Positions 28,044-31,777 of a stretch of DNA of 64,000 bases are shown here, piece after piece. The DNA lies in contig LATX02000198.1 in assembly GCA_001466705.2 (NCBI GenBank), forward strand, positions 479,385-543,384, given 5' to 3'. Below the pieces are notes generated by a model. That model did not search any database and was not told the origin of the DNA. It was given only the letters and a program-made list of their open reading frames with translations. Origin of the DNA: Moniliophthora roreri. Taxonomy: Eukaryota; Basidiomycota; Agaricomycetes; Agaricales; Marasmiaceae. The translations under genes were made by a program, and so were the position numbers. Each line of letters begins with the position of its first letter. The first letter of the stretch is position 1.

Positions 28044-31000
28044 ATGAGTAACCCAAAATCAATGACGACGAGAGCAAAAGTCGATTTACTCCGAAATGTT
28101 CGAGCATCACTATCATCAAAGAATCCAATCGGTACTCTTCTATCATCGGACACAAGCAACATTCCCTCTATTGTAGAAATACTTTACTCGGTACGTGAAT
28201 GACGCACTCACTACAGACCGGAGGATACTCATGCAAGGATCAGGAAGCCTCGTCGACAGAGGACGGAGATTATCGTAAACTTTGCCAGAGATGTCTTCGT
28301 GCACTAGCAAAAAAACATCGAATCGAAGCAATACCGTCCTCGCTGTTCATAAACGACATTGTTCGAGAAGGGCAATACCCAGTAGGAGGAGGCGGCTATG
28401 CGGTATGGAATCCCTCTCATTATAGGCGATTTATTCACGTCTATCCAGGATATCTGGAAGGGAAGCTTAAGAGAGCGATCGGTTTGTTTGAAAGTGCTGC
28501 GAATCCATCTCGAGAGCGAGCGCAGAAGGGAAAAGGTTGTCAAGGTGAGCATCGTCCGTTCTGTTTCTTTTTGGCACGATTTCTCATGCTTGTCTAGGCC
28601 TTCTGCAAAGAGGCTTTAGTATGGACACATCTTGATCATCCAAACGTTCTGCCACTCCTGGGTGTCAACACCAAAGAATTCTATCCCGCGTTCTGTCTCA
28701 TTTCGCCATGGATGCCACATGGTGACATTGTCTCCTACTTGGAAAAGTATCCCGAACATGATCGTTTGAAGTCGGTGCGTATCAGGCTTGTATCGTCAAC
28801 CATTTCATTGCGCGCTCAGCAATAACTTAGGCGTATGAAATAGCATCAGGTCTGGCGTACCTTCACTCACTAAGGCCAATGGTCATACACGGCGATATCA
28901 AAGGTGTACGTGGATTTTATTTTCGCTCCTAGGTCAAACACTCACGACGGTTGGTGTTTAGGTTAACGTCCTCGTGGACGACGATCGCAGTTGCCGTCTG
29001 GCTGACTTCGGTCTGGCCGCGGTTGCAGAGACCCAGCGCCTCGATAGCACAACGAGCGGCTCGATCAAGGGGACTGTCGCATGGATGGCACCAGAAATGT
29101 TGGATCTCGAGGTCATTGAAGTAGACAAAGCATCCGGAGATGTTTATGGGTATGCTTGCACGATTTACGAGGTACGTGTATGGACCTATTGGCCCATTGC
29201 AATTCCAGTTCCCAACTGCATTCACAGTTGATGTCCGGGAAACCGCCATTCCTCGGCAGGGAGGGTGCGATTATCAGGCAAAAAATCAGTGGAATATTAC
29301 CTGAAAAACCAATCGACGGGTGGTGTCCCGACACTGTATGGAGTTTGGTCGAGAGATGCTGGTCAAAAGAACCAAGAGAACGACCTCGCGCTATCCAAAT
29401 CGAGCGATACCTTCAACGAGTCTTGGAAGGTACTGCTAGCTGCCCTGATGATCTTGAAGCCGGCTCGGATTCTCCTTCGGCCTCTGGTACCGATGATGAC
29501 CTCTCAACGTGCAACAATGAATTCTCCGATGATGAATCGCCTGTCATGCGCAATCAGGATTCTATGAAGCGGGAGTACGACAGGCAACCGAGGGAAGAGG
29601 AGAACAAGTATATGTTTGGCCTTCCGAAAGGACAAGAGGACCGGATCGCTTCTATAGACGCTACTATCTCTCACCTTCTTTTTGAGGATGAATATACCGG
29701 CAAAACCGCTATCACAAGTCCCAGCCCATCTCGACGTGCCGGGAATGCCATCAGACCAAGGTTTCGGGGAGCAGAAGTGAGAAGTTGGTGGATGGTCATC
29801 GTAAAAGACGCTGTTGCTGGGGAGCAAGGGTCTCTTCTTGCCGACTACCAGGATCCAAACCTCCTTAGTCTACGTGAAAATTTTACTACCAAGTTACGGA
29901 GTAGCGGCATGAGGTTGCCAGACACCCTTTATACATCAATCACTCCTCTTTTGCCAGCAGCGAGTTCAGCGGACCCGACCAGGAAGATTGCTCTGAGCAT
30001 CCTTCGTACGACATTTCACACTTGGTTTTCCGCGGACAAACCAGACTTCGTCCTGGTACTGATATCTCACCTCGATGACTTTATCTACTCTGCTATTAAG
30101 GTATGCACTCAACCCGATTGAACAGTGAGAATTACTGAAATTTCCCAGAGGATCGGTGATTTAGAGCTTGGCCTGAACATGACATGTCTTCAGCTCCAAC
30201 AAGCCCTGTCGAAACCAATCATTCAGGAGCCATACCTAGCTAACATCGCCTTCAAGATCAACACGCAGCTCGGTGGTGTGAATCGTCAAGTATGTATCTC
30301 CAATTGTTGCTTCATCCCATACTGATGTGTTTGCTAGCTGGATAGTGATGCCATACGATGGCTGAGGGAGAGAAAGACGATGATGATCGGCATTGATTTT
30401 ATGAGTCACGCTCCACGAGATACATCTGAAGGTGGTTTGTCGGTCACAGCAGTTGTAGCGAATGTAGATGAGGAATTCGTTCAATATCCGGCCAGCCTGA
30501 GGGTCCAGCGAGATCTTGAAACAGCAGAAGTAGGTGTCTTTTTACTGTTTCGTGTTTATGCTAATGATGAAATCTAGACGATCTTGCATTTGAAAGATAT
30601 GATAGTTGAGCGGTTTCAGGCTTACAGGGCTAAAAATGGATATCTTCCTGAGAGAGTTATTGTCTTCCGCAATGGGTCTACACCGGTGAGCCACACATTC
30701 ACGTCGGTAGCTGCTTATGGACCGATACCCACATTTGGATCCAGAGTGACGTGATTCTTTATAAGGAGCTACCGATCGTTCTTGAAGCTTTCGAGTATTT
30801 CGACAGTAGCAAACGTTCATATCGACCATTTCTTTCCCTCGTTTGGTGCCTCAAACCACTGGGTGTTCAATACCAGGATCGACCATCATCGCCTCCAACT
30901 CCCATCTTAAGGCAGTCCAATGCGGCCCCTCTGTCTTCCTCTAAACAAATTCGCTGGGGAAGCAATGGCCCAGTTTCATTCGGCCCCATACGTCCCAAAG

Positions 31001-31777
31001 TGTCTGAGCCTTGCAGATATTTCCAAATGGGCAAGTGCAGATATGGGTAAGTGGATCCCCGGGTGACATACCTACCTACCGTTTCTTATACCTGTCTAGC
31101 GATGACTGTCGTTTTCTCCACGTTTTGGCCGAAAACTCCGTAACAATGAATATTAGCAGTGATCAAGAAAGCACAGCTGCTAGCCCGTAAGTTCCCAGCC
31201 GTATAACACAGTACTGAGCATCGTGTCATTTACCAATTGACCCAGACATTCAAACCGTGTTAGACGTGCCTCTATAGATGGCGATCACCGTAATAAAGGT
31301 ATAGGTAGACTGTGAGCTGTCGGTGTTGTTGAGGATGCATTTTTAGCTAACATCTGCGACGAAAGTTTTCAGCTGGACTTCCATCTTCAAGTGAATACCG
31401 GCGATACGATCAGGCTCAAGTATGCGAACTATACCGTAATTTACGACGAGACTAGGTTTACCGTCGATGGGCTGCAGCAAGAAACCGACGTAAACAGCCT
31501 TCTATACACCAAAGCGACATACGCTAGCACTAACAGCCTGATGCCGCCATCCTACTATGCCCACCAGGTATGCAAGAGGGGCAAGTACTACCTGAACAGT
31601 GATGAATTCGCAAACATGGATCGTTCAAGTGGGCGAGAGTTGAACGCCAGAGGTTTTGAGGCTGCGCAGAGGGCCTGGGGTGACGGTGTAAGTTTCGACA
31701 ACTCTCAATTGTTTATCATCTCACTGGTTCCCTCATAGATCCATCCCAATCTGAAGGATAGTATGTTCTTTATCTAA
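28044..31777 (+). CDS. protein kinase - Argonaute (MID-PIWI) fusion with internal CCCH zinc finger
   Basis: Fifteen exons with GT-AG introns of 46-59 bp sum to 3006 nt, 1001 residues. Exons: 28044-28190, 28238-28402, 28449-28544, 28598-28774, 28831-28905, 28962-29171, 29228-30100, 30149-30289, 30338-30529, 30578-30685, 30745-31046, 31100-31186, 31246-31298, 31347-31687, 31739-31777. Kinase about 95-358: GGGGYADIWKG, VCLKVLR lysine, HGDIKG, DFGL, APE. An acidic linker (359-465) leads to MID (about 465-630: AEVRSWWMVIV, DFIYSAIKRIGDLELG, ANIAFKINTQLGG). PIWI: IGIDFMSH (Asp 648), Glu 692, FRNG with Asn 724 for Asp, and FHLQVNTG with Asn 892 for His. It ends HPNLKDSMFFI, like Argonautes. CCCH finger CRYFQMGKCRYGDDCRFLH (818-836) interrupts PIWI. 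No N or PAZ domain. Inference: kinase probably active, slicer dead; a small-RNA-guided or RNA-binding signalling protein is possible. Confidence 0.85.

What the first reader, a model, noticed from the sequence alone, without database searches (positions are those of the whole stretch)
28044..31777. A single gene fusing a protein kinase to Argonaute MID-PIWI domains
Seen: 15 exons that keep frame (3006 nt, 1001 codons without an internal stop). The kinase C-lobe, acidic linker and start of the MID domain all lie in one unbroken exon (29228-30100). The MID, PIWI and C-terminal end (HPNLKDSMFFI) follow Argonaute order. Known: eukaryotic Argonautes have N-PAZ-MID-PIWI and are not known to carry a kinase domain. 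Inferred: small-RNA or foreign-RNA binding by MID-PIWI could control kinase signalling, similar in logic to immune receptors with kinase outputs. I know of no described protein of this architecture.
Basis: partly seen in the sequence, partly recalled or inferred. Interest (0 to 1): 0.95.

Follow-up and report, generated by a model that had tools for sequence, protein, structure and literature searches.

The report
Mushroom kinase fused to Argonaute lobe
The cacao-pod fungus Moniliophthora roreri has two related genes that each join a signalling enzyme (a protein kinase) to half of an RNA-silencing protein (Argonaute) that appears to have lost its RNA-cutting site, a combination I could not find described, and which may let the cell sense RNA or attacks on its RNA-silencing machinery.

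Summary
Window 28044-31777 encodes one spliced protein of 997-1001 aa: a helical N-terminus, a kinase with its catalytic residues, a disordered linker, and a MID-PIWI lobe. No in-frame stop separates kinase from MID. A separate public record (Moror_7116, M. roreri MCA 2997) has the same 997-aa protein with 5 differences. (1) A CCCH zinc finger sits inside PIWI. (2) The genome holds a second, diverged kinase-MID-PIWI gene (C119, 941 aa, 48.6% identical over 797 alignment columns, open throughout, 12 of its 13 introns at the same position and phase). An assembly or annotation accident is therefore very unlikely. Both copies lack N and PAZ, and each has lost at least one active-site aspartate, so they are probably not slicers. 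Their kinases belong to a large Agaricomycete family; 35 of 120 listed members are annotated with a non-kinase domain.

Best reading: a kinase fusion protein with an Argonaute-derived bait or regulatory lobe. Rivals: an RNA-guided kinase, or a chimera with little function. Fusion about 0.95; bait or regulator function about 0.35. New variant of a known kind, seen only in M. roreri in the searches made. No transcript data were available.

The parts
28044..31777 (+). Whole coding span of the kinase-Argonaute gene (15 exons; 997 or 1001 aa by choice of two splice junctions)
   Evidence: Moror_7116
28044..28381 (+). Helical N-terminal region (aa 1-95), predicted helices 4-23, 28-33, 37-53, 57-73; intron 28191-28237 or 28191-28243
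   Evidence: pLDDT block means 85-94 for aa 11-70
28382..29410 (+). Protein kinase domain (aa 96-349): VCLK lysine, HGDIKGVN, ADFG, MAPE
29228..30100 (+). Junction exon: kinase C-lobe, linker and start of MID in one open frame
29411..29752 (+). Acidic, predicted-disordered linker (aa 350-463)
   Evidence: pLDDT under 50 for aa 368-466
29753..30370 (+). MID domain (about aa 464-637), introns 30101-30148 and 30290-30337
30377..30852 (+). PIWI, first part (about aa 640-762); FRDG of relatives is FRNG
30853..31365 (+). Insert within PIWI (about aa 763-877), replaces the KRHHARFYP...RPGTVVD loop of relatives
31006..31124 (+). CCCH zinc finger (aa 814-835), split by intron 31047-31099
31366..31777 (+). 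PIWI, C-terminal part and stop (aa 878-997), ends HPNLKDSMFFI
48755..49548 (+). Partial decayed copy of the PIWI part (93% identical to 30447-31242), CpG 36 to 5
47663..48158 (+). Second partial decayed copy (94% identical to 30447-30944), CpG 23 to 4

Best explanation
SHOWN by sequence: a single open, spliced gene model encodes a kinase joined to an Argonaute MID-PIWI lobe, and a diverged paralogue with the same build lies elsewhere in the assembly. INFERRED FROM SEQUENCE: the kinase is catalytically competent; the Argonaute lobe derives from an Argonaute like those of Moniliophthora and Paramarasmius, lacks N and PAZ, and no longer cuts RNA. INFERRED, less sure: one fusion event followed by duplication in a kinase cluster. 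PROPOSED MECHANISM: a kinase fusion protein. The Argonaute-derived lobe acts as a built-in bait or regulatory module, offering Argonaute surfaces to partners of the RNAi machinery, to RNA, or to foreign factors that attack Argonautes (for example mycoviral silencing suppressors). Binding there changes the activity or localisation of the attached kinase, which signals onward. The CCCH finger adds a possible RNA contact in this copy. Architecture about 0.95; bait or regulator function about 0.35.
For: Separate public record with 5 of 997 residues different. C119 paralogue: 14 exons, 941 aa, no internal stop, kinase E 2.5e-43 and Piwi E 8.1e-29. 12 of 13 C119 introns at the same alignment column and phase, on both sides of the junction. 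NG86 dN below dS in kinase (0.201/1.545), MID (0.447/1.747) and first PIWI part (0.381/2.002). Neutral simulation: at 0.1 substitutions per site the lobe stays stop-free in 0.5% (this gene) and 1.1% (C119) of 1000 runs. MID-PIWI halves join at 93/91 among 17 rows and 83/89 among 23; left in alone, each goes to the Moniliophthora-Paramarasmius part of the tree, nearest P0002. Kinase halves pair at 70/85. Active site changed: this gene keeps the first D, FRDG to FRNG, YYAD to YYAH; C119 GID to GIS, FRDG kept, YYAD to YYAK. Family context: 35 of the 120 listed rows, this gene included, carry a non-kinase Pfam domain in the public annotation, by my reading of the table. Decayed partial copies lost CpGs (36 to 5) while the intact gene kept them.
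Against: No transcript, protein or biochemical data. The lobes have long end branches (1.23 and 1.16 against 0-0.28 for the other five rows of their clade; 1.79 and 1.53), and the join of two long branches may be an artefact, as the program warned; its support fell when more relatives were added. A non-fused M. roreri Argonaute (C99) has as long a branch (1.26), so fast change is not special to the fusion. The kinase pairing is weak (70/85). dS is near saturation, and if there were two separate fusions part of the constraint would predate them. Seen only in M. roreri; no second kinase-Piwi protein is among the 120 listed of 640 hits of the C119 query. Partner-domain lists rest on public gene models, some probably merged neighbours (P0022, P0024). 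The bait idea is an analogy.
Confidence: 0.5

Rival explanations
1. RNA-guided or RNA-sensing kinase: the MID-PIWI lobe (with the CCCH finger) binds small or foreign RNA and this switches the kinase on, as double-stranded RNA does for animal PKR (recalled).
For: This copy keeps the MID tyrosine and lysine (FIYSAIK) and the FKIN lysine; the CCCH family includes RNA binders (function recalled); a MID-PIWI lobe can be a stable unit by itself, as for the 437-residue QDE-2 chain 2yhb (that it is the MID-PIWI lobe is recalled).
Against: No PAZ or N domain to hold a guide; the KINTK lysine is Q here and the tyrosine is C in C119; the KRHHARFYP and LQG loops are lost in both; C119 has no CCCH.
Confidence: 0.2
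2. Chimera with little or no Argonaute-lobe function: a kinase cluster prone to domain capture caught an Argonaute fragment, and the lobe is passively kept or decaying.
For: Long branches; seen in one species only in the protein searches, which list 16 of 16, 120 of 223 and 120 of 640 hits; partial copies in the window have decayed; relatives have many different annotated partners, and the tail of one sibling (L050) shows no domain that I recognise by eye.
Against: Two copies stop-free over 534 and 450 lobe codons; dN below dS in MID and the first PIWI part; conserved C-terminus (HPNLKDSMFFI / HPNIAETMFYI); introns conserved.
Confidence: 0.22
3. Gene-model or assembly artefact: separate kinase and Argonaute genes read as one.
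For: Public models of related kinases include probable merges (P0022, P0024); no RNA evidence here.
Against: One stop-free exon spans the junction in both genes; records of two isolates agree; paralogue with the same intron positions.
Confidence: 0.03

Closest known systems
Fungal Argonautes (Neurospora QDE-2; M. roreri P0002 and P0136)
   Same: MID and PIWI order, C-terminus; about 50% identity to M. roreri P0002 over 60% of the query part, and 51% over 446 tree columns
   Different: No N or PAZ; active site changed; CCCH insert; kinase attached
Agaricomycete TKL-like kinases, including FslK (PMC3937382; two passages and section 7 read)
   Same: Kinase type, lineage, many paralogues; extra domains in 16 of 241 FslK members according to that paper
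   Different: The parts read name no Argonaute partner; the supplementary table of extra domains could not be read
Triticeae kinase fusion proteins (Sr43, Lr9, Pm4; PMC10260397, ten passages read)
   Same: A kinase joined to an unrelated domain proposed as an integrated decoy; repeated fusions to different partners
   Different: Plants; resistance function shown there, none shown here
PKR (recalled, not tested)
   Same: RNA-binding part plus kinase in one protein
   Different: Double-stranded-RNA-binding domains, not an Argonaute lobe

Membership tests
Argonaute (AGO) | MID and PIWI domains | tested here: met
   Piwi E 3.7e-32; QDE-2 chain 2yhb E 2.6e-25, two stretches reaching the C-terminus
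Argonaute (AGO) | N and PAZ domains | tested here: not met
   No PAZ, N or linker family in the Pfam scans of either fusion; kinase in their place
Argonaute (AGO) | Intact slicer active site (D-E-D-D in these fungal relatives) | tested here: not met
   This gene FRNG; C119 GIS and YYAK; glutamate position ambiguous in this gene; roles of the residues recalled
Argonaute (AGO) | 5'-phosphate pocket residues | tested here: inconclusive
   Y, K and one K kept, one K to Q; C119 loses Y (pocket residues recalled from human AGO2)
Argonaute (AGO) | Small-RNA binding | not testable with these tools
   needs protein
Protein kinase (TKL-like) | Catalytic lysine, HxD aspartate, DFG, APE | tested here: met
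FslK kinases | No tyrosine-kinase motifs, P at the fourth position of GXR(L/M) | tested here: inconclusive
   HGDIKGVN, GTVAWMAPE and GILP compared by eye with PMC3937382 section 7; they fit, but the third letter is L, not R, and no alignment to FslK members was made
FslK kinases | Place in the FslK clade | not tested
   reference sequences not at hand
Kinase fusion protein / integrated-decoy receptor | Apparently functional kinase joined to an unrelated domain in one protein | tested here: met
   by sequence
Kinase fusion protein / integrated-decoy receptor | Recognition of a foreign factor through the extra domain | not testable with these tools
   no functional data

The most novel reading that the evidence does not exclude
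Agaricomycete fungi have a large family of modular kinase receptors, a counterpart of plant kinase fusion proteins and of immune receptors with integrated decoys. In it a common kinase is combined with duplicated host signalling proteins as bait. The M. roreri kinase-Argonaute proteins are members that guard the RNAi pathway and signal when a mycovirus or other parasite attacks Argonaute.
Probability: 0.2. Interest if true: 0.92.

Novelty: new variant of a known kind. Interest (0 to 1): 0.72.

Why it matters
Argonautes and kinases are two of the most studied eukaryotic protein classes, and my searches of open-access papers (listings only) gave no report of one protein carrying both. If the lobe controls the kinase, fungi link RNA silencing directly to phosphorylation signalling. 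If the lobe is bait, it would mean fungi guard their RNAi machinery, and the other partner domains in the same kinase family would be candidate baits that point to what parasites of fungi attack. That is testable from genomes alone to a useful degree.

Tried and rejected
Assembly or annotation artefact: thought very unlikely.

A further complete copy inside the window: the copies at 47663 and 48755 hold only PIWI exons and are decayed.

PAZ-less Argonautes of Paramarasmius palmivorus (P0137, P0138) as kinase fusions cut short: no kinase in the annotated proteins; their upstream DNA was not examined.

Sibling kinase at C119:23164 (L050): its tail shows no domain that I recognise by eye; it was not scanned. 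RhoGEF-kinase (P0022, P0024): not taken as a sound fusion, because a likely kinase start lies between the two parts (by eye), though both are in the count of 35.

Fold search of the full model: the 50 rows shown by each program are kinases, so the MID-PIWI and N-terminal folds were not tested that way; Argonautes are absent from those rows.

Long-branch control: the MID-PIWI tree was rebuilt with 21 public Argonautes (of the 16 hits and 120 listed) with both fusions and with either left out. The pair's support fell from 93/91 to 83/89; alone, each fusion sits nearest P0002.

Rows left out: P0014, P0015 and P0016 of the 16 hits, P0001 being represented by the window gene; 49 of the 119 other listed kinases were used and 18. 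Six more Piwi loci of the genome (C144, C125, C67 and three on C100) were too diverged or partial and were not put in a tree.

In the count of 35, five rows whose only extra Pfam entries are PF19974 or PF07387 (P0021, P0050, P0052, P0089, P0116) were taken as kinase-like and not counted.

Paper searches. I saw listings only, apart from PMC2838846 (eight passages), PMC3937382 (two passages, section 7) and PMC10260397 (ten passages). None of what I saw describes a kinase-Argonaute fusion.

Full report
WHAT IS THERE. The window is C98:479385-543384 of a 59.4-Mb genome in 154 contigs. The gene's best public match is Moror_7116 of Moniliophthora roreri MCA 2997. Contig C119 has the same length, 346593, as the contig of the M. 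roreri protein WG66_011164, so the assembly is probably M. roreri WG66 (inference). The spliced gene model has 15 exons, 3006 nt, 1001 aa and no internal stop. Choosing the other option at two junctions gives 997 aa that differ from Moror_7116 at 5 positions. In the paralogue, the intron matching the second ambiguous one ends as the Moror_7116 choice does, so I prefer 997 aa.

A SECOND FUSION. In the same genome, C119:10939-14484 (L017) encodes 941 aa with kinase E 2.5e-43 and Piwi E 8.1e-29. It aligns colinearly with the window gene: 48.6% identity over 797 alignment columns, then 29.6% over 159 columns to the C-terminus. 12 of its 13 introns coincide in column and phase with introns among the 14 of the window gene. 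I chose splice sites partly by homology, but all follow GT-AG. Moror_7116 and Moror_7124 lie on contigs of the same length, 329223, presumably one contig, and the M. roreri protein like Moror_7124 (P0022) matches C119 just before the second fusion, by eye. So the two fusions may be neighbours in one kinase cluster (inference).

ORIGIN. The MID-PIWI halves of both fusions fall in one clade with M. roreri and P. palmivorus Argonautes (100/100, 7 rows of 17) and join each other (93/91), with a long-branch warning. With 21 public Argonautes the join has 83/89; with one fusion left out, the other stays nearest P0002. The kinase halves fall in one 7-row clade (98/98) and pair at 70/85; in the larger quick tree the order inside that clade is open. 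One fusion followed by duplication is favoured, not proven. Normal Argonautes persist: C138 matches PAZ-bearing P0002, and C83 is 98.3% identical to PAZ-bearing P0136 over 474 columns.

SELECTION. dN/dS by NG86: N-terminus 0.447/1.827, kinase 0.201/1.545, linker 1.174/3.38, MID 0.447/1.747, first PIWI part 0.381/2.002; insert (26 codons) 0.5 and last PIWI part 0.632, both over saturated dS. In a neutral simulation (kappa 2, 1000 runs each) the lobes stay stop-free in 33% and 35% of runs at 0.02 substitutions per site, 7% and 7% at 0.05, 0.5% and 1.1% at 0.1, and none at 0.2 or more. The frame is therefore kept, unless the fusion is very young compared with the dS of about 1.5-2 that separates the copies.

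ACTIVITY. The kinase keeps its lysine, HGD aspartate, DFG and APE (read from sequence). In PIWI the M. roreri relatives read GIDVTH, FRDGV, YYAD; this gene reads GIDFMSH (GIDSMSH in MCA 2997), FRNGS, YYAH; C119 reads GISVAPC, FRDGV, YYAK. H at the last position is used by animal Argonautes (recalled), so the clear loss in this gene is D to N. Both lost the KRHHARFYP and RPGTVVD stretches; only this gene has the CCCH finger there. That the lobe does not cut is inferred from these residues.

FAMILY. A search with the kinase part gave 223 proteins at E 1e-20 or better, 120 listed. By my reading 35 of the 120, this gene included, carry a Pfam domain outside kinase-like families. Names for most accessions are recalled; RhoGEF, AMP-binding, caspase, Piwi and CCCH were confirmed by scan. 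Among the 120 only P0001 has Piwi. Some partners lie N-terminal to the kinase and some C-terminal (49 of the 119 others measured). Public gene models may be merged, so the number is only a guide. FslK kinases were reported to have extra domains in 16 of 241 members (PMC3937382).

MECHANISM. An apparently working kinase with an apparently slicer-dead Argonaute lobe best fits a regulator or bait. PMC10260397 proposes the same logic for wheat kinase fusion proteins (passages). An RNA-guided kinase is possible for this copy but less so for C119. A passive chimera cannot be excluded without expression data. This is inference from anatomy.

LIMITS. There was no transcript evidence and no other Moniliophthora species to compare. 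The three protein searches each scored only the roughly 8000 candidates sharing most words, within length limits, so a fusion annotated as two short proteins would not be seen. Paper searches cover open-access texts only.

Noticed in passing
window 27032-27873: A roughly 0.85-kb element with terminal inverted repeats (48-52 nt arms, 90-92%) ends 170 bp before the gene's ATG; related stretches lie on C95, C150, C90, C124 and other contigs.
   Followed up: partly
window 47663-48158 and 48755-49548: Two partial copies of the fusion's PIWI exons, in a 1092-bp tandem repeat, decayed mainly at CpG (34 of 46 C>T and G>A changes in the longer one, CpG 36 to 5): a possible sign of methylation-linked mutation in this fungus.
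   Followed up: partly
window 32539-35480 and 50734-53696: A fungal-type (Pkinase_fungal) kinase locus duplicated at 97.4% identity without CpG decay (CpG 178 and 174).
   Followed up: partly
window 4814-6456 (-) and 11253-12920 (+): Two genes with NPHP3_N-type (NACHT-like) ATPase domains in inverted arrangement, 79% alike over 711 nt.
   Followed up: partly
window 2-842 (-) continuing into L019: A sibling kinase whose tail holds a weak C2H2-finger match below the curated cut-off.
   Followed up: partly
L017 49-2281: RhoGEF and kinase annotated as one protein in public records (P0022, P0024); probably two neighbouring genes merged (by eye).
   Followed up: partly
P0049 (Moror_8651): M. roreri kinase of the same family followed by a caspase domain (E 9.5e-20): another unusual annotated fusion.
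   Followed up: no
P0137, P0138 (Paramarasmius palmivorus): Short Argonautes of 540 and 546 aa without PAZ.
   Followed up: no
L009 (C99): A third M. roreri Argonaute locus on a branch as long as those of the fusions (1.26) although not fused to a kinase in the frames read.
   Followed up: no
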